Positions 113 to 9,051 of a stretch of DNA of 9,051 nucleotides are shown here, piece after piece. The position numbers and the translations under genes are program-made. The stretch comes from an uncultured Eubacteriales bacterium (lineage in GTDB: Bacteria > Bacillota_A > Clostridia > Oscillospirales > Oscillospiraceae). Position 1 is the stretch's first letter. The number at the start of each line of letters is the position of its first letter. Location of the stretch: NCBI GenBank assembly GCA_949739085.1, contig CATIYU010000201.1:1-9051 (forward strand), in the 5' to 3' direction. Under the pieces are notes generated by a model, which saw only the letters and a program-made list of their open reading frames with translations, searched no databases and had not been told where the DNA came from.

Positions 113-151
113 AGAACAGACCGTCCAGGAAACTGGACGGTCTGTTCTTTT
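113..151 (+). terminator. Strong rho-independent terminator after the upstream gene
   Basis: A perfect 16-bp stem is formed by 113-128 and 133-148, closed by a GAAA tetraloop (129-132) and followed by Ts to position 151. There is no mismatch in the stem. It marks the left border of the locus and should insulate the recombinase gene from upstream transcription. Confidence 0.9.
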
Positions 152-281: not shown

Positions 282-1127
282 ATGAAAAAACGTCAAATCA
301 CCCAAAAGAAGCTCTCCGCTTTCCAAATGGAGCTCCGGTCGGAGGAGCGCAGCGCGGGCACAGTGGAAAAATATCTGCGGGATATCCGGGCATTGACGGC
401 CTGGCTCAACGGGCGGAATGTGGAAAAAGAATCCATTTCCCACTGGAAGGCCCACCTTCTGGAGAAGGGCTACGCGCCGGTGACGGTCAACTCCATGCTC
501 TCCGCTGTCAACAGTTTTCTGCGCTTCGCGGGCTGGGAGGATTGCAGGGTCAAATTCCTGCGCGTTCAGCGGCGGACGTTTCGGGAGGAGAGCCGGGAAT
601 TGACCAGGAGCGATTACCAGAGGCTGCTCGATACGGCGCGGGACCTTGGGCGGACGCGGCTGGGACTGCTCATTGAGACGATCTGCTCCACGGGCATCCG
701 CGTATCGGAGGTAAGCTATATCACCGTGGAGGCCGCGCAGCGGGGCGCGGCGGAGATCCGCCTGAAGGGAAAGGTCAGGACCATCCTCCTGCCGGCCAAG
801 CTCTGCCGGAAGCTGCTGAAATACGCCAAAAAGCAAAAAACCGCCTCCGGTGAGATATTTCTCACGAAAAGCGGAAGAAGTCTGTCCAGGCGGCAGATCT
901 GGCGGGAGATGAAGCAGCTGTGCGTCCGCGCCGGCGTGGAGGCGTCCAAGGTGTTCCCCCACAATCTCCGCCACTTATTCGCGTCGACGTTTTACCGGGT
1001 CAGCAAGGATATCGTCACGCTGGCGGACCTGCTGGGCCACAGCTCCATTAACACAACCCGGATCTACCTGCTGTCTACGGGAACAGAGCATATCAAACGG
1101 CTGGAACGCCTGGGATTAGTCAGCTAG
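282..1127 (+). CDS. Tyrosine recombinase / DNA invertase (phage-integrase family)
   Basis: A 281-residue site-specific recombinase. An N-terminal SAM-like core-binding domain covers about residues 8-85 (features such as TVEKYLRDIRAL and YAPVTVNSMLSAVNSFLRF), followed by the catalytic domain. All family active-site positions are visible: Arg140 (STGIRVSEV), Lys164 (LKGKVR), His227 and Arg230 (PHNLRH), His253 (LGHSS) and nucleophile Tyr262 (TTRIY). It should therefore be active. It is short and lacks the arm-binding domain of lambda-type phage integrases, which fits XerC/D-, FimB- or inverton-type enzymes. AAGGAG at 268-273 lies 8 bases before the ATG. The first of a pair of perfect inverted repeats begins 8 bases after its stop, and no excisionase or other phage gene is near. 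My inference is that it inverts the adjacent promoter segment. A remnant element integrase is the alternative. Confidence 0.93.
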   Translation: MKKRQITQKKLSAFQMELRSEERSAGTVEKYLRDIRALTAWLNGRNVEKESISHWKAHLLEKGYAPVTVNSMLSAVNSFLRFAGWEDCRVKFLRVQRRTFREESRELTRSDYQRLLDTARDLGRTRLGLLIETICSTGIRVSEVSYITVEAAQRGAAEIRLKGKVRTILLPAKLCRKLLKYAKKQKTASGEIFLTKSGRSLSRRQIWREMKQLCVRAGVEASKVFPHNLRHLFASTFYRVSKDIVTLADLLGHSSINTTRIYLLSTGTEHIKRLERLGLVS

Positions 1128-1135
1128 AGCGTTCG

Positions 1136-1156
1136 GTGGGCAAAATCAACCTTTTG
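1136..1156 (+). repeat. Left inverted repeat (IRL), putative recombination site
   Basis: This 21-bp sequence starts GTGGGCAAAATC and ends CCTTTTG. It is the exact reverse complement of 1413-1433, with pairing lost immediately outside and inside. Within it, 1141-1156 (CAAAATCAACCTTTTG) has the layout of a tyrosine recombinase core site: 5-bp inverted arms CAAAA and TTTTG around a 6-bp asymmetric spacer TCAACC. It begins 8 bases after the recombinase stop codon, so inversion would not change that reading frame. Confidence 0.9.
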
Positions 1157-1190
1157 TTCCAGAGACCGGCTGGAGCTTTTTGCCGACAGC

Positions 1191-1220
1191 ATTATATCAT
1201 ACAGATCAACGTACATGCAA
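1191..1220 (-). promoter_or_regulatory. Extended -10 promoter inside the invertible segment, facing left
   Basis: On the minus strand the -10 is a perfect TATAAT (1196-1191), preceded by TG one base upstream (TGATATAAT), an extended -10. The best -35 is TTGCAT at 1220-1215 with an 18-bp spacer. Upstream DNA (1240-1221) is A/T-rich, resembling an UP element. Transcription would start near 1184 and run left through IRL into the 3' end of the recombinase gene as antisense RNA. After inversion it would read through the right repeat into the regulator gene with a leader of roughly 94 bases. I found no comparable rightward promoter between the internal terminator and the regulator start. Confidence 0.75.
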
Positions 1221-1282
1221 TAGTGTTTATTTAAAAATGTGCAGAAAAAGATTTGCACCACTCCAATAGATATCCCGGAGCA

Positions 1283-1299
1283 CCCGCAAGCGCTGCGGG
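1283..1299. other. Small GC hairpin within the invertible segment
   Basis: CCCGCA (1283-1288) and TGCGGG (1294-1299) form a 6-bp stem with a 5-base loop. No T-run follows on either strand, so it is not a terminator by itself. It lies midway between the leftward promoter and the terminator. It may be an RNA structure or binding site, or it may be chance in GC-rich DNA. Confidence 0.35.
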
Positions 1300-1348
1300 A
1301 ACAACAGCCATCCATACGGGACAGACACTTATTATTTTTGATGTTATT

Positions 1349-1371
1349 CCGCTCTTCAGAGCGGTTTTTTT
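1349..1371 (+). terminator. Rightward terminator inside the invertible segment
   Basis: CCGCTC (1349-1354) pairs with GAGCGG (1359-1364) across a TTCA loop, followed by seven Ts (1365-1371). The other strand lacks a good T-tract after the hairpin, so it acts in one direction. In the present orientation it stops read-through from the recombinase gene before the regulator. After inversion it would face left, leaving the regulator open. Confidence 0.85.
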
Positions 1372-1412
1372 AAAAATTTAAAACAATCATCTCCCTTTCA
1401 CCGGGATATTGT

Positions 1413-1433
1413 CAAAAGGTTGATTTTGCCCAC
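1413..1433 (-). repeat. Right inverted repeat (IRR), putative recombination site
   Basis: The sequence is an exact reverse complement of 1136-1156 over all 21 bases. The core site at 1413-1428 has arms CAAAA (1413-1417) and TTTTG (1424-1428) around spacer GGTTGA. Because the spacer is not palindromic, strand exchange between the two copies would give inversion and not deletion. It lies 45 bases upstream of the regulator ATG, so it would be part of the regulator's leader RNA in the ON state. Confidence 0.9.
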
Positions 1434-1478: not shown

Positions 1479-2675
1479 ATGGACATGAATGCGGTACAAG
1501 TGAAAATGCTTGGCGAGTTTTCTGTGTCCTGCGGGGACGCGGCGGTCAACGACAGGAACAGCCGCTCCCGGACCGCGAGAATTCTGCTGGCATACCTCAT
1601 CTATCACCGGGGCCGGATGGTGTCAATTGACGAGCTCGTCCGCGTCCTTGACCGCAGCCAGAAAAATACCGCCCCTGTGGCGGCTCTCCGGACGGCGCTC
1701 TACCGGGTGCGCCGCATGATTGAGCCCCTGCAGGAGCGGATCGGCCTGCCTTTCATCGTCTCCAGGAGCGGCCGGTACGGATGGAATCCGGATGTTCCCG
1801 TGGAGCTGGACGCGGCGGAATTTGAGGATATGCTCCGGGAGGATACCCCGGCCTGCTGCCAGCAGGCGCTGGAGCTGTACCGGGGGGATTTTCTGCGCAG
1901 TCTGGCGTCGGAGCCTTGGGTGGAGCCGCTGGCCGAATACTACCGGAACCTGTATCTCACCGCCGTCGAGAGGGCGGCGCCGGTGCTGATCGAGAGCGGC
2001 CTTGCGGACAAGGCCGCAGACTGCTGCCGCAGCGCGATCTCCATGGCTCCCTACCGTGAGACGCTGTACCGCTGCCTCATCGCCGCCTGCATCGCGCTGG
2101 GCGACAGGGAGAGCGCGAAGGCGAGCTATGAGGAGCTGCGAGCGGTCCTCTATAAGGACCTGGGCATTGTGCCGGGGGACGAGCTCCGGGAGCTCTACGA
2201 GAGCACCTTGCTGGGGGCGGAGGAGGACGCGCTGACGCCGGACAGCATCCAGGCCCAGCTCCGGGAGCACAGCCCGGTTTCCGGGGCGCTGATTTGTGAC
2301 TACACATCCTTTAAGCTGTTTTACCAGGCGGAGGCGCGGGCCGCGGCCCGGCGCGGAGACGCGATTCATATCGGCGTCCTGTCGGTGATCGGCAGAGGCG
2401 GAAGGGCGCTGGCCTCCCGAAGCCTCGCCCGGGCGATGGAACAGCTTCATGCCCACATTGAGGGGAGCCTGCGCACCGGGGATATCGCCTCCTGCTGTAG
2501 TGCTTCCCAATATATTCTGATGCTGGTGCAGGCCAACTATGAGAACAGCAAGCTGGTCTGCGACCGCATTATACAGGCGTTTTATTCCGCCCACCCCCGG
2601 TCGCCCATTCGGATACAGTCGGTGGTGTTTCCCCTGGAGCCGATGCTGAGAAGCGGAGGCCCGCCGGAAAAATAG
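1479..2675 (+). CDS. Winged-helix/BTAD (SARP-like) transcriptional regulator with degenerate GGDEF-like C-terminus
   Basis: A 398-residue predicted cytoplasmic DNA-binding regulator. About residues 5-107 read as an OmpR/SARP-type winged helix (VQVKMLGEFSV at the start, SIDELVRVL, LRTALYRVRRMIE, and the wing VSRSGRYGWNP). Residues 110-245 match a bacterial transcriptional activator (BTAD) TPR-like helical domain, with ALELYRGDFL, APYRETLYRCLI and YEELRAVLYKDLGIVPGDELRELY. Residues about 267-387 resemble a GGDEF fold that has lost its catalytic signature: SASQY (341-345) sits where GGDEF would be, after LRTGD and before a hydrophobic ILMLV strand. GGGGAG (1467-1472) lies 6 bases before the ATG; a second ATG at 1485 is possible but worse placed. 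The invertible element sits immediately upstream, so this is the first gene controlled by the switch. Its targets are unknown; the operon downstream is the obvious candidate. Confidence 0.88.
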   Translation: MDMNAVQVKMLGEFSVSCGDAAVNDRNSRSRTARILLAYLIYHRGRMVSIDELVRVLDRSQKNTAPVAALRTALYRVRRMIEPLQERIGLPFIVSRSGRYGWNPDVPVELDAAEFEDMLREDTPACCQQALELYRGDFLRSLASEPWVEPLAEYYRNLYLTAVERAAPVLIESGLADKAADCCRSAISMAPYRETLYRCLIAACIALGDRESAKASYEELRAVLYKDLGIVPGDELRELYESTLLGAEEDALTPDSIQAQLREHSPVSGALICDYTSFKLFYQAEARAAARRGDAIHIGVLSVIGRGGRALASRSLARAMEQLHAHIEGSLRTGDIASCCSASQYILMLVQANYENSKLVCDRIIQAFYSAHPRSPIRIQSVVFPLEPMLRSGGPPEK

Positions 2676-2789: not shown

Positions 2790-3218
2790 ATGCCGAAAAT
2801 GAGCGGCGAAATGTATCGCAATATACGCCTGTGCGTCGACTCCTATGAGCAGGGCGTGTGGAGGGGCCGCTGGTACCATCCGGGCCTGCCCGGCGGCGGG
2901 CGGAAATTCAGCAGCCTCACCCAGTTCCTGGCGGGGGCGGAGGCCCTCTGGGACGGGATGAATTTTCCCCAGTCGTTTACCGCGAGGCGGTCGTTCCTCC
3001 CCCTGCCCAGCGCCGGCGGCGGGGAGGACTCCGGGGCGGAGCCGGGGACGGGCGCGCGCGGCACCTTTATAATCCGGTGCCTGTTCCGCCAGAACACCAG
3101 CTGGCAGGGGAGCGTCCGGTGGATGGAAGGTCAGGGCGAGCAGACATTTCGCAGTGTGCTCGAGCTGATACTCTTGATAGACAGCGCCCTTGGCGGCTGC
3201 GGGGAGGGATCGGAATGA
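2790..3218 (+). CDS. Conserved-looking 142-residue protein of unknown function
   Basis: No named family is recognised. The protein has no signal peptide and no convincing membrane segment, so it is probably cytoplasmic. The N-terminal part (GEMYRNIRLCVDSYEQGVWRGRWYHP, described in two parts: residues 6-20 and 21-31) and residues 43-69 (LTQFLAGAEALWDGMNFPQSF onward) look like one small alpha/beta domain. Residues 70-91 are a Gly/Pro/Glu-rich linker. The C-terminal part holds an aromatic motif, RQNTSWQGSVRWMEG (100-114), then FRSVLELILLIDSAL (120-134), probably a helix. A G-rich ribosome binding tract (2773-2785) precedes ATG 2790. Its stop overlaps the signal peptidase start by four bases (ATGA), so translation is probably coupled. 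From memory, similar short proteins occur beside surface-protein operons in gut Clostridia, but I cannot verify that here. A role in regulating or delivering the adhesin is only a guess from position. Confidence 0.8.
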   Translation: MPKMSGEMYRNIRLCVDSYEQGVWRGRWYHPGLPGGGRKFSSLTQFLAGAEALWDGMNFPQSFTARRSFLPLPSAGGGEDSGAEPGTGARGTFIIRCLFRQNTSWQGSVRWMEGQGEQTFRSVLELILLIDSALGGCGEGSE

Positions 3219-4072
3219 CGCAGAAGCAACTGGAAAAGCTCAGCCGGAAGCGCCTGCTGGAGATGCTGGCCGAGCAGATCGGCAAATCCGAGCGGCTGGA
3301 GCGGGAGAATACCCGGCTCAAGGAGCGCATCGCGGACCGGGAGCTGCATCTGGCGCAGATGGGCACGCTGGCCGAAGCGCTTATCAGCAGCAGCGGCGGC
3401 GGGATGGACCGGACGCAGGCGGACGATATGGTCAAACGCCTGGCGGAGATCCGGGCCCCCGACTCCGGCGAGGAGGAGGACGCGGAGGAGGCAGAGCCTC
3501 CTGGCCGAAGAGACTGGCCCACCCGGGAACAGCTCCTGCTGGAGGCGAACCGGGAGGGCGGCAGGCGGCGCTATCTGTGGAGCTTCAAGACCACAATCTA
3601 CGCCATGGTAACGGTGGCGGCCGCGGCGGTGCTGGTAGCGGTTCTGCTGCTGCCGGTCCTGCGCATCTACGGCACATCCATGAACCCGACGCTCTACGAG
3701 GGGGACTTCGTTGTGAGCATCAAGGGGGGAAAAATGGATACCGGGGACCTGGTGGCGTTTTACTGGAACAACAAGATCCTGGTCAAGCGGGTCATCGGCC
3801 AGGCGGGGCAGTGGGTGGACGTCGCTGAGGACGGAACTGTCTATGTGGATAATGTCCGCATCGACGAGCCCTATCTGAGCGACAAGGGGTTTGGAGAGTG
3901 CGACATTGAGCTGCCCTACCAGGTGCCGGAAAACCGGGTATTTGTGATGGGGGACAACCGCAGCGTGTCGGTGGACTCCAGAAGCACCTCCATCGGCTGC
4001 GTGGCCGAGGAGCAGCTGGTGGGAAAAATTGTATTTCGGCTCTGGCCGCTGAGTGAATTTGGGAAGCTATAG
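3215..4072 (+). CDS. Type I signal peptidase with coiled-coil N-terminal extension
   Basis: A 285-residue S26-family signal peptidase that would cleave signal peptides at the outer face of the membrane. One transmembrane segment (about 126-149) is followed by the catalytic Ser155 in YGTSMNPTL, the general-base Lys191 in LVKRVIG, and the GDNRS box (246-250) with DSR (254-256), so the Ser/Lys dyad is intact. The unusual part is about 120 cytoplasmic residues before the membrane span. Residues 1-50 are charged with leucine heptads, probably coiled coil (KLSRKRLLEMLAEQ, RLERENTRLKERI), and about 83-96 are strongly acidic. Typical Gram-positive enzymes have a very short cytoplasmic N-terminus. GGGAGGG (3202-3208) lies 6 bases before the ATG, which overlaps the previous stop. 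The adhesin starts 29 bases after its stop, so it is probably a dedicated peptidase for that protein, though it may also have general use. Confidence 0.93.
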   Translation: MTQKQLEKLSRKRLLEMLAEQIGKSERLERENTRLKERIADRELHLAQMGTLAEALISSSGGGMDRTQADDMVKRLAEIRAPDSGEEEDAEEAEPPGRRDWPTREQLLLEANREGGRRRYLWSFKTTIYAMVTVAAAAVLVAVLLLPVLRIYGTSMNPTLYEGDFVVSIKGGKMDTGDLVAFYWNNKILVKRVIGQAGQWVDVAEDGTVYVDNVRIDEPYLSDKGFGECDIELPYQVPENRVFVMGDNRSVSVDSRSTSIGCVAEEQLVGKIVFRLWPLSEFGKL

Positions 4073-4092: not shown

Positions 4093-4101
4093 GTGTGGGC
4101 T

Positions 4102-4251
4102 GTGAAAAACTTGGTGAAGAAGGTCAGCGCGTATCTGGGCGCGAGCAGGGCGCGAAAGGCGTTTGTCCGTGCCCTGGCAATCGTTGTGGTGTTTACCACT
4201 ACATATTCGCTGGTGCTGCCGGCCATTACGCAGACAATCAGTCTGGCCGCT
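4102..4251 (+). other. Signal peptide region of the surface protein
   Basis: The basic N-region (KNLVKK, RARK) is followed by a hydrophobic stretch ALAIVVVF and then TTTYSLVLPAIT. Cleavage is probably a little after this, near ISLAA (46-50), but the exact site is not certain. The YSLVLPAIT end is unusual compared with the common AxA ending. Confidence 0.7.
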
Positions 4252-7200
4252 GAGCTGGATGGCGTCAGTGTACGGGTGGAAGCGAAGGAGGGCGCTGTCC
4301 CGGAGGGGACGGAGCTGGTTCTTGCCCCGGTGCTGCTGCCGGAGGACGAGGAGATCGGAGACGATATCCGGCGTCTGACGGAGGAGGAGACGGCACTTAT
4401 CCGCGAGGCGGCGCTGGCGGGAGACGATACCCGCGAGGCGGCGATCCTCAAGGTGCTGGATATCTCGCTGTACCACAACGGCGGGGAGATCGAGCCGGTG
4501 GACTCCGTGCGGCTGTTTATGGCGTCGGAGCTGCTGGGCGAGGCGGTATGTCCCGCGATTGTCCACCTGAGCGATGACGGCGCGTCGGAGCTGCTGGACG
4601 TGGAGATCCGGGACGGAGAGTCCCAGATCCTCTTCGGTGAGGACTTCGACGATGAGGCGGAGCTTGAGATCCCCGACGGCATGATGCTGGATGAGGATGG
4701 GAACCTGGTCCCCATTCCCGGGGAGCTTCCCCCGGAGCTGGACGAAAACGGCAATCCCATCGTAAAGGATCCGGAGCTGGATGAGAACGGCAACCCTGTC
4801 GAGAAGGACCCCTCTGAGGAGAATGAGAACGGCGAGCCCGCTGAGAAGGACCCCGCAGAGGGAAATGAGGACGGCGAGCCTGTCGAGAAGGATCCCGCAG
4901 AGGAGAACGAGGACGGCGAGCCCGTCGAAAAGGACCCTGCGGAGGAGAATGAGAGCGGCGAGCCCTCCGAGACTCCCGGTGAGGATGAGGACGAGACCCC
5001 CAAGGAGCCCGATGAGAGCGAAGAGGCGGAGCCCGAGGCTCCCCCCGCAGAGGAGCCGGAGCCTGAGCCGGAACCCGAGCCGGAGCCCGAGGAGCCTCCT
5101 GTGGAGGAGCCCGCCGGGCCGGAGGATACATCCGAGGAGCCGGAGCCCGCGCCCGAGGCGGAGATGGTTACTGATGAGTTCTCTGTGTACGCGATTGTTG
5201 ACCTGCTGCCCAGGCAGGAGGAGCCCGAGGAGGAGAAGATGACCTTCGAGGGCAGCGTGGAGGATATGGACGTATTCGTCACCGCGCCGGCGGCTGCGTT
5301 CCCCGAGGGGACCACAATGGAGCTGGCAATGGTGCCCGTGGAGGAGGTCGAGGCGGCTGTCAACGAGGCCGTGGAGGGCGAGGTCAAGGTCGTCAAGGCC
5401 GTGGATATCACCTTCTACAGCGCCGACGGCGAGGAGATCGAGCCCAGCGAGCCCATCAGCGTGGTCATGAGGCCCCATGAGGAGCTTGCGGAGCTCGCCA
5501 ACGCGGAGAACGACGCCCAGCTGGTCCATATCGGCAAGGAGGAGGCCACGGTGGTGGCCGGCGCCGATGTCAAAGCGGACGAGGTCAGCTTTGCCTCCGG
5601 CGAGTTCTCGACCTACGTTATCGTCATCCCCCTGGGCAAGCCCGGCACCCAGACCTACGAGGGCGGCGGCGTGACCATCACGGTGAGCTACGGCCCCGAG
5701 GCCAACCTGCCCGAGGGCACGGTGCTGGAGGTTGAGGAGCTGGAAGAGGGCTCTGAGGCGTACAGCGAGTACCTTGCCAAGACGCAGAGCGTCCTGAACC
5801 TGGACGCCAGCGTGGTTTCCATGGAGGACGTGAGCCTGGAGGCTCAGCTTGCCGCGCTGCTGGGCGGCGAGCAGAAGATCGAGAAGGCCCGGTTCTTCGA
5901 TATCACCCTGGTATATAACGGCGAGGAGGTCGAGCCGGAGGCCCCGGTGACGGTGGAGATCAAGTACGACGACGCCTCTGAGGCGGGCGAGGGCTTGCAG
6001 ATCGTCCACTTCGCTGAGCAGGCGGACGGCACGGAGAAGCCCGAGATTATTACCCCCGCCGTGGAGGACGGTACTGTTACCTATCAGCAGGAGAGCTTCT
6101 CGGTTGATGCGGTAACGCTTGCGAATGCCTTCGGTAATGCAGGGTGGGTCAAAGATGGCCGTATGGAATTTCATTACGGACGCACAAAAATAGACAATAA
6201 ACCGGTCTTTGAATTAGCGTATTTTGACGGTAATGTGCTTCGGCCTGGGTATGTGCCGACTAATAAGTGGCTGTACTATGGTGATGCTGGCTATCCAGCT
6301 GGAGACGGCGGAGTTTTGCGTCCCGGAACTACCATTGAAAATATTGTCGAGGCTCTGAAAAAAAATCCGAATGCTGGACAGCTGAAAGGAGTTACCATTG
6401 ATTTCATAATGCACGCCACCTATGACGTGAACAATGAGAGTTATGCGGTTCATGGACGTCCTGGCGGTGCTACGGAAATCTGGGATGCAAGCGGACTTGG
6501 AGGCGTCAAAATCACACGTGGCAGCGGGTTTGATGGTTATTTGATTGATATGTATCAGAATACCCCCGCAATGCAGATGAAGGGCAACGTGATCGTTGAT
6601 AACGCTGCGAAACAGATCGGTGCACACTCCGGCTTTGATGAAAACGGTTCGATCAGCCAGCCTGTGGCTATCCAAATCCGGGATGGCGGTCTGCTGATGA
6701 TGATCAATGGCAGTCATATTACAGATAGTACTGGCTCTAATCTTGGCACTGGCGTCCTGCTGACCAGCACTATGGTTTCCGAGGGTTCTGCCTTTAACCC
6801 CAGTACTCAGGGCGGCAATATTGAGATTTTTAACCTCGAAGGCAGTACAGGTGGTACGAGCAGCTATATTACGGGTATGGCTGTAGCAATTGAACAGGAA
6901 TATGGCGAGACGCGGCTCAAGACGGCTGCAAACCCGTTTAGGGGGAATACAGTAGGTGTGGCCCTGCATCATGGCAACTCCATTGGAAAATGGGAGGATC
7001 AAGTTCCCGGTACGTTGCAGGTGCCGGTCTTCCTTCGGGATGTGGAAAAATGGAAATCCGGCGACATTGTGATGAACAGCGGCTATACACCTCCTAAGGT
7101 TCACAAGAGAGTTGTTCCTGCTGATGAGGCAAAACTGATTTTCATGAACGGTCATGATACTACAACTCAAATGGGGTTGGAGTACTATGCCGGAAGCAAA

Positions 7201-9051
7201 GAGGGCGTTTACCCCATTATCCGTTTCTACGTTGGCACAGTGCTGAATACAAGAACCGGAGAGTGGTATAAGACACTTTATGACGCAGTAAACGGAACCA
7301 ATCCTATTAAGATTTCCACGCAGCCTCGACCTGAGGAGGCTATTAAGGATGACGATACCCTTGTCTTTTATGGCAACACCCTTGAGGGCCTGGATATCAA
7401 TATCAATCACAATCTGACAATTCGCTCCTCCAATTCGGGCGAACTGCCAACCGACGACCGTTCTGGCAGTGCCTGCACCGCAATGCTGGATCATTCGACC
7501 ATCACCATTGCTTCCAGCAAAACCGTTACCTTCGAGGGCGGAACCGGTGGCCTGACCCTGGCCGGCAGCAGTGGGGACACCATTGAGAACAACGGCACCC
7601 TGAACCTCCAGGCCGGCGTCACCCTGTGCGATGCCAAGGGAGCTGCGGTGCGTCAGAACGGAGAGTTCCATCTGTACGAGGGTGTAACCTTCCGGGGGAA
7701 TGCTGTTGATACTCGCCTTGAGGCCGATAACCGCTATATCACCCTGGAGACTACGCATCCTGCAACCAGTGTTAGAGTTGAGCTCGCCAACCAGTACAAC
7801 GGACGCGATGTTGTGGTGGCCGGGACAGCTGACAGTATTGGTACGACGCTGGACGAGAGTTACCTGGATCGATTCCCCTTGACGAACATGGAGGAGACGT
7901 TCCAATACGTCTACAACGAGACCGGTGGCCCTGGAGACGTGCGCGTTCTGGAGCTGAAGGAGAACGGCAGCGGGTTTGTGGATGTTCTGGTGCTCGACGA
8001 GGATGACCAGCCGGTTGCAGGTGTAGAAGTTGCAATTGACGGAACCCATTACACGACAGGAGAAGACGGCCATACGGAAAAGGTGAAGTATCAGAAACAA
8101 TCTGAAAACAACACTGTAAACCTGGAGACGCTTCCTGTCGGTTACGAGGACAGCAAGGACAACAGAGGCGAAACTGTTTATAATGTCGTGCCTGCTGATA
8201 ATGGCGAAGACTTCGTTGTAAATGTGACTACTAAAGAGCACGATGAGGATGTGATCTCAGACAACATCCACACCTTCGTCTACAAACTGGCTTCCAAGAA
8301 GCACCCCCTCACCCTGCTGAAAACCGACGCGCAGGGGAACGCACTGGGTGGAGCTGAGTTCACATTCACTGGCGCGGCGGATTCTTCTCCTACGCTTACG
8401 AGTAAGGCGGACGGTCAGATCTGGACTGGTACCCTCAAAGCGGGCGTGTACACTCTGACCGAAACAAAGGCACCTGAGAGCTATAAGAAACCCACTGAGC
8501 CTATTAAAATTACAATAGCAGCCGACGGCAGTGTGACAACCGATGCTGCGGAAACGGATGTCAAAGTTGACAATAAGGCGCACACGGTGACAGTTATCAA
8601 CTTCCCGGCGACAGTAAAGGTCACGCTTATCAAGGTTGAGACAGGCAAGCCGGATAAGAGGCTGGAGGGTGCGGAGTTCCAGTTGAGCGCTTCTGGCTGG
8701 GCTAAGCAAGCAGAGACGGATGCCAATGGTCAAATTGTGTGGAATGATGTCCCGGTGGATAAGGAATACACCCTTACAGAGACAAAAGCACCCAAGGGAT
8801 ACCTTGCTGCGGCTGAATCGGTGACCATCACAATTGAAGATACTGGTGAGATTGTCTGCTCCAGCACTTCCGTAGAGGCTCAAAAGGCGGCGGACGGGAG
8901 TATCACCATCACTGTCACCAACAGTCCTGGCCAGCGTCTCCCCAACACGGGGGGCATAGGCACCCTGCTGTTCACAGCTGCCGGTGCGAGCCTGATGGGC
9001 GCGGCGTTCCTGCTGCTGGCACTCCGGAAGAAGGGCCGTGGACGGGCGTAA
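4102..9051 (+). CDS. Large LPXTG-anchored SpaA/CnaB-type surface protein (putative adhesin)
   Basis: A 1649-residue wall-anchored protein, read from GTG 4102. Residues 1-50 are an export signal with a basic start, a hydrophobic core (24-42) and a TTTYSLVLPAIT motif. Three related modules follow, each with PEGT (67, 401, 537), a DI-[ST]-x-Y-x-G-E-EP type motif (120, 435, 600) and a VH pair. The first is split by a Glu/Pro-rich tract (about 190-353). Residues about 676-1285 are rich in short Asn/Gly/Ser/Thr strands and look like a beta-helix or beta-solenoid, the probable ligand-binding part. A CnaB-like domain without an obvious isopeptide Lys (about 1290-1398) leads into two SpaA-type domains with Lys/Glu/Asn triads (K1407-E1454-N1500; K1511-E1560-N1607), each with a YTLTETKAP E-box. 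The end is LPNTG (1613-1617), a hydrophobic segment and RKKGRGR. It would be exported, trimmed by the neighbouring peptidase and wall-anchored by a sortase encoded elsewhere. No YPK pilin motif is present, so it is more likely a stand-alone adhesin or tip subunit than a pilus backbone. Confidence 0.9.
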   Translation: MKNLVKKVSAYLGASRARKAFVRALAIVVVFTTTYSLVLPAITQTISLAAELDGVSVRVEAKEGAVPEGTELVLAPVLLPEDEEIGDDIRRLTEEETALIREAALAGDDTREAAILKVLDISLYHNGGEIEPVDSVRLFMASELLGEAVCPAIVHLSDDGASELLDVEIRDGESQILFGEDFDDEAELEIPDGMMLDEDGNLVPIPGELPPELDENGNPIVKDPELDENGNPVEKDPSEENENGEPAEKDPAEGNEDGEPVEKDPAEENEDGEPVEKDPAEENESGEPSETPGEDEDETPKEPDESEEAEPEAPPAEEPEPEPEPEPEPEEPPVEEPAGPEDTSEEPEPAPEAEMVTDEFSVYAIVDLLPRQEEPEEEKMTFEGSVEDMDVFVTAPAAAFPEGTTMELAMVPVEEVEAAVNEAVEGEVKVVKAVDITFYSADGEEIEPSEPISVVMRPHEELAELANAENDAQLVHIGKEEATVVAGADVKADEVSFASGEFSTYVIVIPLGKPGTQTYEGGGVTITVSYGPEANLPEGTVLEVEELEEGSEAYSEYLAKTQSVLNLDASVVSMEDVSLEAQLAALLGGEQKIEKARFFDITLVYNGEEVEPEAPVTVEIKYDDASEAGEGLQIVHFAEQADGTEKPEIITPAVEDGTVTYQQESFSVDAVTLANAFGNAGWVKDGRMEFHYGRTKIDNKPVFELAYFDGNVLRPGYVPTNKWLYYGDAGYPAGDGGVLRPGTTIENIVEALKKNPNAGQLKGVTIDFIMHATYDVNNESYAVHGRPGGATEIWDASGLGGVKITRGSGFDGYLIDMYQNTPAMQMKGNVIVDNAAKQIGAHSGFDENGSISQPVAIQIRDGGLLMMINGSHITDSTGSNLGTGVLLTSTMVSEGSAFNPSTQGGNIEIFNLEGSTGGTSSYITGMAVAIEQEYGETRLKTAANPFRGNTVGVALHHGNSIGKWEDQVPGTLQVPVFLRDVEKWKSGDIVMNSGYTPPKVHKRVVPADEAKLIFMNGHDTTTQMGLEYYAGSKEGVYPIIRFYVGTVLNTRTGEWYKTLYDAVNGTNPIKISTQPRPEEAIKDDDTLVFYGNTLEGLDININHNLTIRSSNSGELPTDDRSGSACTAMLDHSTITIASSKTVTFEGGTGGLTLAGSSGDTIENNGTLNLQAGVTLCDAKGAAVRQNGEFHLYEGVTFRGNAVDTRLEADNRYITLETTHPATSVRVELANQYNGRDVVVAGTADSIGTTLDESYLDRFPLTNMEETFQYVYNETGGPGDVRVLELKENGSGFVDVLVLDEDDQPVAGVEVAIDGTHYTTGEDGHTEKVKYQKQSENNTVNLETLPVGYEDSKDNRGETVYNVVPADNGEDFVVNVTTKEHDEDVISDNIHTFVYKLASKKHPLTLLKTDAQGNALGGAEFTFTGAADSSPTLTSKADGQIWTGTLKAGVYTLTETKAPESYKKPTEPIKITIAADGSVTTDAAETDVKVDNKAHTVTVINFPATVKVTLIKVETGKPDKRLEGAEFQLSASGWAKQAETDANGQIVWNDVPVDKEYTLTETKAPKGYLAAAESVTITIEDTGEIVCSSTSVEAQKAADGSITITVTNSPGQRLPNTGGIGTLLFTAAGASLMGAAFLLLALRKKGRGRA
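4735..4971 (+). repeat. Tandem 13-14 residue acidic repeats in the adhesin
   Basis: Five full units and one partial unit follow the pattern acidic-x-(D/N)-E-(N/D)-G-(N/E)-P-x-(E/V)-K-D-P. Examples are ELDENGNPVEKDP, AEGNEDGEPVEKDP and AEENEDGEPVEKDP. The first two units have 13 residues and the later ones 14. Neighbouring units are very similar at DNA level (for example around 4857-4938), so recent duplication and slippage-driven copy-number change are plausible. All units keep the reading frame. Confidence 0.85.
4972..5163 (+). repeat. Glu/Pro-rich low-complexity linker
   Basis: After the tandem units the protein becomes an acidic, Pro-rich tract with a run of Glu-Pro dipeptides (about 5056-5090). 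Such tracts in surface proteins commonly span the cell wall or act as stiff spacers. Its position near the N-terminus, far from the LPNTG anchor, is unlike a classic wall-spanning linker. Confidence 0.8.
5239..5637 (+). other. Adhesin module 2
   Basis: MTFEGSVEDMDVFVTAPA leads into FPEGT (400-404), DITFYSADGEEIEP (435-448), QLVHIG (473-478) and the closing strand FSTYVIVIPLG. The order and spacing of motifs match modules 1 and 3. It is probably a small beta-sandwich; no ligand is known to me. Confidence 0.7.
5650..6126 (+). other. Adhesin module 3
   Basis: TYEGGGVTITVSYG is followed by LPEGT (536-540), DITLVYNGEEVEP (600-612), IVHFAEQADG (634-643) and FSVDAVTLAN. It carries a roughly 35-residue insertion after PEGT compared with module 2 (around SEYLAKTQSVLNLDASVV). 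Its end coincides with a clear change in base composition. Confidence 0.7.
6127..7965 (+). other. Probable beta-helix/beta-solenoid region of the adhesin
   Basis: The region has many short strand-turn units rich in Gly, Asn, Ser and Thr, for example GNVIVDNAAKQIG, VAIQIRDGGLLMMINGSHI, LDININHNLTIRSSNSG and TIENNGTLNLQAGVTLCDA. This resembles right-handed parallel beta-helix proteins such as pectate-lyase-like folds. I see no catalytic signature of a known lyase. Base composition drops here: by hand count 5341-5400 is 41/60 G+C, whereas 6421-6480 is 30/60. Confidence 0.55.
7966..8298 (+). other. CnaB-like domain lacking an evident isopeptide lysine
   Basis: GFVDVLVLDEDDQPVAGVEV opens like a CnaB/carboxypeptidase-regulatory beta-sandwich, with TTGEDGHTEKVKY as the next hairpin. 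The position where SpaA domains carry the bond-forming Lys is occupied by acidic or hydrophobic residues. Probably structural without the internal cross-link. Confidence 0.55.
8299..8610 (+). other. SpaA-type domain with predicted Lys-Asn isopeptide bond
   Basis: Lys1407 (TLLKTDAQG), Glu1454 in the E-box YTLTETKAPE, and Asn1500 (VINFP) are at the positions expected for an intramolecular isopeptide bond. ALGGAEFTFTG is the usual second strand. Confidence 0.8.
8611..8934 (+). other. Second SpaA-type domain with predicted isopeptide bond
   Basis: Lys1511 (LIKVETG), Glu1560 in YTLTETKAPKGY, and Asn1607 (VTNSP) form the expected triad. RLEGAEFQLSA and TDANGQIVWNDVP are standard SpaA strands. It sits directly before the sorting signal. 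Confidence 0.85.
8935..9051 (+). other. LPNTG cell-wall sorting signal
   Basis: LPNTG (nt 8938-8952) is followed by a hydrophobic segment of about 23 residues (IGTLLFTAAGASLMGAAFLLLAL) described here in outline, then the basic tail RKKGRGRA and TAA. This is a complete LPXTG sortase substrate signal. The window ends exactly at the stop codon. Confidence 0.95.

What the first reader, a model, noticed from the sequence alone, without database searches (positions are those of the whole stretch)
1136..1433. Recombinase-adjacent invertible promoter: a phase-variation switch, captured in the OFF orientation
Two perfect 21-bp inverted repeats flank 256 bp carrying an extended -10 promoter directed away from the downstream regulator and a terminator directed toward it. 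A catalytically complete tyrosine recombinase gene ends 8 bases before the left repeat. Inversion would aim the promoter at the regulator and turn the terminator away. Every part needed for an ON/OFF switch is present in one compact module.
Basis: partly seen in the sequence, partly recalled or inferred. Interest (0 to 1): 0.93.

Follow-up and report, generated by a model that had tools for sequence, protein, structure and literature searches.

The report
Invertible promoter switch for surface adhesin
Between a recombinase gene and a set of regulator and surface-protein genes, in what is likely a gut Clostridia bacterium, lies a promoter-like sequence flanked by two perfect inverted repeats that match the sites found beside dozens of related recombinase genes, where the same kind of segment occurs in either direction; the recombinase is predicted to flip it, and this would switch the surface protein on and off.

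Summary
In detail: perfect 21-bp inverted repeats, 256 bp apart, start 8 bases after a catalytically complete tyrosine recombinase gene; between them a promoter-like sequence points left and terminator-like hairpins point right. Relatives support the interpretation. Of 110 distinct related recombinases with at least 420 nt downstream, 92 have the same layout; 1 of 426 control regions did. A site model built without the window picks exactly its two repeats. The central 4 bp, not scored, agree between partner sites in 72 of 72 well-scoring loci though they vary between loci, as a crossover region would. The promoter points away from the next gene in 68 loci, towards it in 18, uncalled in 6; similar segments of opposite class align reversed in 23 of 24 pairs, of equal class on the same strand in 68 of 70. 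Inversion in this strain is untested. The predicted target is a BTAD regulator, a small protein, a signal peptidase and an LPXTG protein. Clostridia invertons with linked tyrosine invertases are published. Not met in my searches: the first switched gene is often a putative DNA-binding protein, among them recombinase paralogues without catalytic residues.

The parts
282..1127 (+). tyrosine recombinase, 281 aa, predicted invertase
   Evidence: PF00589 E 5e-25 and PF02899 E 7e-11; catalytic R-K-H-R-H-Y present; relatives share the downstream layout
1136..1156 (+). left inverted repeat; family core site 1140-1157, predicted 6-bp crossover TCAACC 1146-1151
   Evidence: site model without the window scores 21.7 bits at 1140+; crossover inferred
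1413..1433 (-). right inverted repeat; family core site 1412-1429, predicted crossover 1418-1423
   Evidence: 18.9 bits at 1412-
1157..1412 (.). segment predicted to invert (256 bp), here in the predicted OFF orientation
1191..1220 (-). predicted extended -10 promoter: TTGCAT, 18 bp, TATAAT with TG; points away from the operon
   Evidence: same place and motif in relatives
1349..1372 (+). predicted terminator (hairpin 1349-1364 and T run), points at the operon in this orientation
   Evidence: 14 of 19 promoter-opposed terminators in relatives and window lie in the same part of the segment
1156..1181 (+). second, weaker terminator-like hairpin
1479..2675 (+). BTAD (SARP-like) transcriptional regulator, predicted first switched gene
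   Evidence: PF03704 E 4e-23
2790..3218 (+). 142-aa protein of unknown function
   Evidence: no Pfam or NCBIfam match; 282 homologues
3215..4072 (+). signal peptidase I
   Evidence: TIGR02227 112.8 bits, cut-off 47
4093..9051 (+). large LPXTG-anchored surface protein with SpaA-type domains (start codon uncertain)
   Evidence: PF17802 E 6e-31, PF00746 E 2e-6; TIGR01167 above cut-off

Best explanation
A 256-bp segment with a predicted promoter lies between two perfect inverted copies of the site found beside related recombinase genes, directly after a complete tyrosine recombinase gene, and the recombinase likely inverts it, which would switch the downstream operon on and off. In the orientation captured the promoter points left, into the 3' end of the recombinase gene, and two terminator-like hairpins point right, so the operon is predicted to be OFF. 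After inversion the -10 would lie at 1373-1378 on the plus strand, with a leader of about 95 nt before the BTAD gene, and the hairpins would no longer be followed by T runs in that direction (inferred). The ON transcript would carry the BTAD regulator, a 142-aa protein, a signal peptidase and a large LPXTG surface protein (inferred from gene order). Strand exchange would take place in the 6-bp centre TCAACC (inferred from the family).
For: Parts. Recombinase intact. Same layout in 92 of 110 related recombinases with at least 420 nt downstream (76 of 88 in the first set); control regions 1 of 426. Site model built from the 75 other loci ranks the window's two repeats first and second (21.7, 18.9 bits); best hit elsewhere 6.6. 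Central 4 bp agree in 72 of 72 loci whose two sites both reach 10 bits on arm positions alone; shuffled partners mean 4.3, maximum 12. Promoter: 56 of 59 segments have a strong candidate 50-95 nt from an end, shuffled mean 3.4, maximum 8. Directions: 68 OFF, 18 ON, 6 uncalled of 92. Similar segments of opposite class align reversed in 23 of 24 pairs with recombinase genes collinear; best pair L001/L157, same genome, 82% over 157 nt. 14 ON loci need 14 changes on a recombinase tree of 64, shuffled mean 12.8.
Against: No read-level test was possible; no genome is held for the window. Orientation in relatives comes from assemblies of different loci and species: it shows inversion over evolution, not a rate. 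Three of 94 similar pairs with both loci called go the wrong way: L023/L156, L006/L121, L028/L122. 19 of the 24 opposite-class pairs involve L009 or L157, both in genome G001. 18 of 110 recombinases show no repeat by my rule. Of the 16 loci below the site threshold, the centres of 4 best-scoring pairs disagree (L033, L046, L057, L060). Well-supported tree branches force only 3 changes. The window's inner segment matches no relative's segment better than E 0.14. Promoter, terminators and operon are predictions.
Confidence: 0.88

Rival explanations
1. The switch is locked: the segment inverted in the past but no longer does so in this strain.
For: OFF outnumbers ON 68 to 18 among 86 called loci; no reads could be looked at for the window.
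Against: The recombinase has all six catalytic residues, both sites score well and the repeats are perfect over 21 bp; decay would be expected to blur them.
Confidence: 0.08
2. The inverted repeats are not recombined but bind a regulator, for example the recombinase-like protein or the BTAD protein acting as repressor of the segment's promoter.
For: The arms are dyad-symmetric, as operators often are; some first switched genes in relatives are recombinase paralogues without catalytic residues.
Against: The central 4 bp, which vary between loci, agree within loci in 72 of 72; similar segments are found reversed; 102 of 102 adjacent recombinases keep the catalytic tyrosine.
Confidence: 0.03
3. 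The segment inverts but its target is mainly the recombinase (antisense control), not the downstream operon.
For: In the captured orientation the promoter points into the 3' end of the recombinase gene, and 68 of 86 called loci have that orientation.
Against: In relatives the next gene is usually on the plus strand (first downstream ORF in 64 of 75 by a crude caller), and the terminators found are more often opposed to the promoter (19 of 64 against 7 of 64), which suits control of what lies to the right.
Confidence: 0.04

Closest known systems
Clostridia inverton group 139 with invertase group 35 (Jin et al. 2025, PMC11892184; abstract, passages, sections 6 and 8 read)
   Same: Inverted-repeat segments, 32 of 33 from class Clostridia, with tyrosine-type recombinase genes within 5 kb.
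   Different: Their repeat motif is in a supplement that I could not read, so sharing of the site is untested. The two sections read name no regulator or inactive recombinase as first switched gene of that group.
Clostridioides difficile RecV-dependent switches, such as cwpV and flg (PMC5903667 passages; PMC2784873 search listing and start of abstract)
   Same: Tyrosine recombinase inverts a small segment that controls expression of a large cell-wall protein.
   Different: From recall: RecV acts on several distant switches and cwpV is controlled by an invertible terminator-like element; here each module has its own adjacent recombinase and an invertible promoter.
PsrA, hsdS invertase of Streptococcus pneumoniae (search listing and abstract starts)
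   Same: Tyrosine-type invertase; a 69%-identical relative of the window's protein bears the source name 'tyrosine-type DNA invertase PsrA' (P0044).
   Different: PsrA exchanges coding sequences of a methyltransferase subunit, not a promoter.

Membership tests
recombinase-linked invertible promoter (inverton) | inverted repeats flanking a promoter-like sequence | tested here: met
recombinase-linked invertible promoter (inverton) | repeats are the recombinase's sites | tested here: met
   by sequence only: model from 75 other loci finds them; binding not tested
recombinase-linked invertible promoter (inverton) | both orientations occur in related loci | tested here: met
   68 OFF, 18 ON, 6 uncalled of 92; 23 of 24 opposite-class pairs reversed
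recombinase-linked invertible promoter (inverton) | both orientations occur within one strain | not testable with these tools
   no reads; no genome held
tyrosine recombinase | integrase fold domains and catalytic R-K-H-R-H-Y | tested here: met
XerA/XerC/XerD equivalogs | NCBIfam curated cut-off | tested here: not met
   best NF040815 160.3 bits against 220
serine invertase (Hin type) | resolvase domain | tested here: not met
   only phage-integrase families matched in Pfam
inverton group 139 / invertase group 35 of PMC11892184 | repeat motif of the group | not testable with these tools
   motif is in the supplement, which could not be opened
SARP/AfsR-type regulator | BTAD domain | tested here: met
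   PF03704 82.8 bits, cut-off 22.1
SARP/AfsR-type regulator | N-terminal winged-helix DNA-binding domain | tested here: inconclusive
   PF00486 16.2 bits, below cut-off 26.2

The most novel reading that the evidence does not exclude
This family of switches carries its own feedback: the first gene read in the ON state is a DNA-binding factor that acts back on the switch. In 13 of 76 loci that gene is a paralogue of the recombinase; all 13 paralogues checked (12 of those 13 loci, and L028 where it comes third) lost the catalytic tyrosine and the first catalytic histidine. They would sit on the recombination sites and hold the switch ON or bias its direction. In 13 loci the first gene is AP2-like, in 13 a treble-clef zinc-finger gene, in 3, the window among them, a BTAD regulator. 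In the OFF state the same promoter would make antisense RNA against the recombinase, which could help explain why 68 of 86 called loci are OFF.
Probability: 0.25. Interest if true: 0.8.

Novelty: new member of a known kind. Interest (0 to 1): 0.56.

Why it matters
The window gives a compact switch in which site, predicted crossover, promoter and target operon can all be named, in a recombinase family found in 111 of 400 sampled genomes of one bacterial family. The site (ACAAAAT-NNNN-ATTTTGT) and promoter motif (TTG, then TGnTATAAT) can be used to find such switches without reads. The recurring first gene, including recombinase paralogues without catalytic residues, makes it testable whether bacterial phase switches regulate their own flipping.

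Tried and rejected
Phage origin: no near match in 50,697 phage records and no relative of the recombinase in viral contigs (17 pattern matches, none confirmed); plasmids were not searched. Known RNA in the window: no Rfam match at gathering score. The 142-aa protein as AP2-like: profile comparison gave probability 0.3% and the fold search no match at E 0.001 (best E 0.13, Pur-alpha, TM 0.23, model mean pLDDT 77); rejected. A consensus promoter for the recombinase: none in 1-400. BTAD as the usual target of the family: it is the first switched gene in only 3 of 76 loci, with further BTAD matches after the switch in L072 and L077 and one elsewhere in L025. Three orientation rules were used: 44 OFF, 15 ON of 59; 50 OFF, 14 ON, 12 uncalled of 76; 56, 14, 6 of 76; L079 ON to uncalled, L119 uncalled to ON, L070 OFF to uncalled, 7 uncalled to OFF. 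Searches use the rule, that. One search timed out and was redone. Contigs end within 420 nt after the recombinase in 12 of 80 loci and before it in 4 of 80, but within 420-1500 nt in 3 and 6: a hint of assembly breaks at the switch, too weak to use.

Full report
What is there. The repeats 1136-1156 and 1413-1433 are perfect over 21 bp with 256 bp between. The recombinase ORF 282-1127 stops 8 bases before the left repeat and has the six catalytic residues of tyrosine recombinases. On the minus strand the segment carries TTGCAT-N18-TATAAT with TG one base before the -10, pointing left. Two terminator-like hairpins point right. Downstream, on the plus strand, follow a BTAD regulator, a 142-aa protein of unknown function, signal peptidase I and a large LPXTG surface protein with SpaA-type domains.

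Whose site it is. One search confirmed 118 stretches that encode relatives of the recombinase and kept the best 80 (53-71% identity, best segment); their titles name Oscillospiraceae, Lachnospiraceae and other Clostridia, or unclassified bacteria. After removing duplicates there were 102 recombinases, 88 with at least 420 nt downstream; 76 of these 88 have inverted repeats 150-420 bp apart that begin within 130 nt of the gene's end. With three genus searches it is 92 of 110, out of 128 distinct, 18 being too close to a contig end. One near-identical pair, L161/L162, is counted twice there. The same rule on 426 control regions of the same loci found 1. The shared site is ACAAAAT-NNNN-ATTTTGT. 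A matrix from the 75 other loci scores 21.7 bits at 1140+ and 18.9 at 1412- in the window; the next hits are the same two places read backwards (10.5, 6.8), then 6.6 elsewhere. So the window's repeats are the family's sites, which the repeat search alone could not say.

Crossover signature. To avoid circularity I located sites by their arm positions only, giving the central four bases no weight and not demanding a repeat. In 72 of 88 loci both sites reached 10 bits; in 72 of 72 the central four bases agree, and so do all six at positions 7-12, while the outermost position agrees in 46. With partners shuffled between loci the centres agree in 4.3 on average, at most 12. Centres differ between loci. 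Of the 16 loci below threshold, the centres agree in 12 and disagree in 4 (L033, L046, L057, L060). Strand exchange by a tyrosine recombinase over a 6-bp centre would keep such identity; that rule is recalled knowledge of the family.

Both orientations. In 56 of 59 segments of the first set a strong promoter candidate lies 50-95 nt from one end; shuffled segments reach this in 3.4 on average, at most 8. Measured from the core site, 70 of 76 could be called, 56 OFF and 14 ON, the -10 ending a median of 46 bp from the site (window 33); shuffled segments were called in 6.4 on average, at most 11. In the larger set 68 are OFF, 18 ON, 6 uncalled of 92; 18 of 86 differs from one half (binomial p 5e-8, treating loci as independent). 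If the classes are real flips, similar segments of opposite class should align reversed. They do in 23 of 24 pairs; 67 of 68 OFF-OFF and 1 of 2 ON-ON pairs align on the same strand; 4 further pairs hold an uncalled locus. The exceptions are L006/L121, L023/L156 and L028/L122, the last a T-rich 45-nt match. The strongest case is L157 (ON) against L001 and L002 (OFF), all in genome G001: 82% over 157 nt and 79% over 162 nt reversed, recombinase genes collinear at 79% and 87%. These are paralogous loci. 19 of the 24 opposite-class pairs involve L009 or L157, so the pairs are not independent. On a recombinase tree of 64 loci the 14 ON loci need 14 changes, no fewer than shuffled labels (mean 12.8), so orientation does not follow descent; well-supported branches alone force only 3.

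Promoter and terminator. The 60 aligned promoters with a 17-bp spacer read CTTG, then TGnTATAAT. The scan rewards these words, so their sharpness is partly by construction; the shuffles are the control. A terminator opposed to the promoter is found in 19 of 64 segments, one in the promoter's direction in 7, against 0.6 per strand in shuffles; 14 of the 19, the window included, have one in the same part of the segment (about 55-117 in the promoter's frame). In the OFF orientation such a terminator would stop recombinase transcripts before the operon (inferred). In the other 45 of 64 no such terminator was found by this rule.

What is switched. Of 76 loci, 13 have an AP2-like gene first, 13 a treble-clef zinc-finger gene, 13 a recombinase paralogue, 3 a BTAD gene (window, L036, L041), and 34 none of these; the match begins 13-147 nt after the right repeat in the 42 (the models were built from some of these same genes, which match by construction). 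The Pfam AP2 matches are below the curated cut-off. Of 203 downstream ORFs examined, 52 fall in one sequence-linked cluster, which holds 33 of the 37 ORFs of 700 aa or more; repeats or low-complexity stretches may do part of the linking. Matches to SLH (3 of 56 proteins) and Listeria-Bacteroides repeats (2 of 56) point to surface proteins. The recombinase paralogues (26-34% identical to the window's enzyme in the 10 aligned) lost the catalytic tyrosine and first histidine in 13 of 13 checked (12, L132; L006 not checked), while 102 of 102 family recombinases keep K, H, R, H and Y and 101 of 102 the first R. The locus with the closest recombinase held, L132 (76% identical; the same place as L111), has such a paralogue first and a 1060-aa ORF next, cut by the contig end.

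What is known. Jin et al. 2025 (PMC11892184; abstract, passages, sections 6 and 8 read) found invertons in most strains of a defined gut community and linked inverton group 139 (32 of 33 from Clostridia) to tyrosine invertase group 35. PMC5903667 (passages) reports 14 of 15 inversion-positive Firmicutes samples as Clostridia. The window most likely belongs to this known kind. My searches for BTAD with inverton (no paper), inverton with phase variation and Lachnospiraceae (no paper), catalytically inactive tyrosine recombinase with phase variation and inversion (2 papers), and the wider ones (the last two lists of 22 and 63 capped) showed, by title and start of abstract, no BTAD-controlled inverton and no inactive recombinase as first switched gene; the library holds open-licence papers only.

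Verdict. The invertible promoter is well supported (0.88); inversion in this strain and control of the operon are inferred. It is a good new member of a known kind; the recurring first gene is the part that a specialist might find surprising.

Noticed in passing
L132:8665-9477, and first gene in L004, L005, L006, L008, L027, L033, L057, L061, L068, L112, L114, L125; third gene in L028: Gene after the invertible segment is a tyrosine-recombinase paralogue; the 13 checked (not L006) lack the catalytic tyrosine and first histidine.
   Followed up: partly
L002:1264-1725 and 12 further loci: First switched gene is a roughly 160-aa protein with a cysteine-rich N-terminal part and an AP2-like C-terminal part, below Pfam's cut-off.
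   Followed up: partly
L020:3167-4327 and 12 further loci: First switched gene resembles tandem DUF4379 treble-clef zinc-finger proteins.
   Followed up: no
window 2790-3218: 142-aa protein family, 282 homologues, none of the 120 listed with a Pfam domain; relatives also in L036 and L077, which have BTAD genes; the model shows two beta-beta-beta-alpha repeats.
   Followed up: partly
window 113-148: Perfect 16-bp hairpin with a 4-base loop before the recombinase gene; the scan lists it as terminator-like on the minus strand only.
   Followed up: no
window 4732-4990: Tandem repeats of 39-42 bp coding an acidic, Asn- and Pro-containing stretch of the LPXTG protein.
   Followed up: no
G001 (L001, L002, L009, L157): One genome carries at least four of these modules, two assembled OFF and two ON.
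   Followed up: partly
window 9049-9051: The window ends exactly at the stop codon of the LPXTG gene, so genes further on, such as a sortase, cannot be seen.
   Followed up: no
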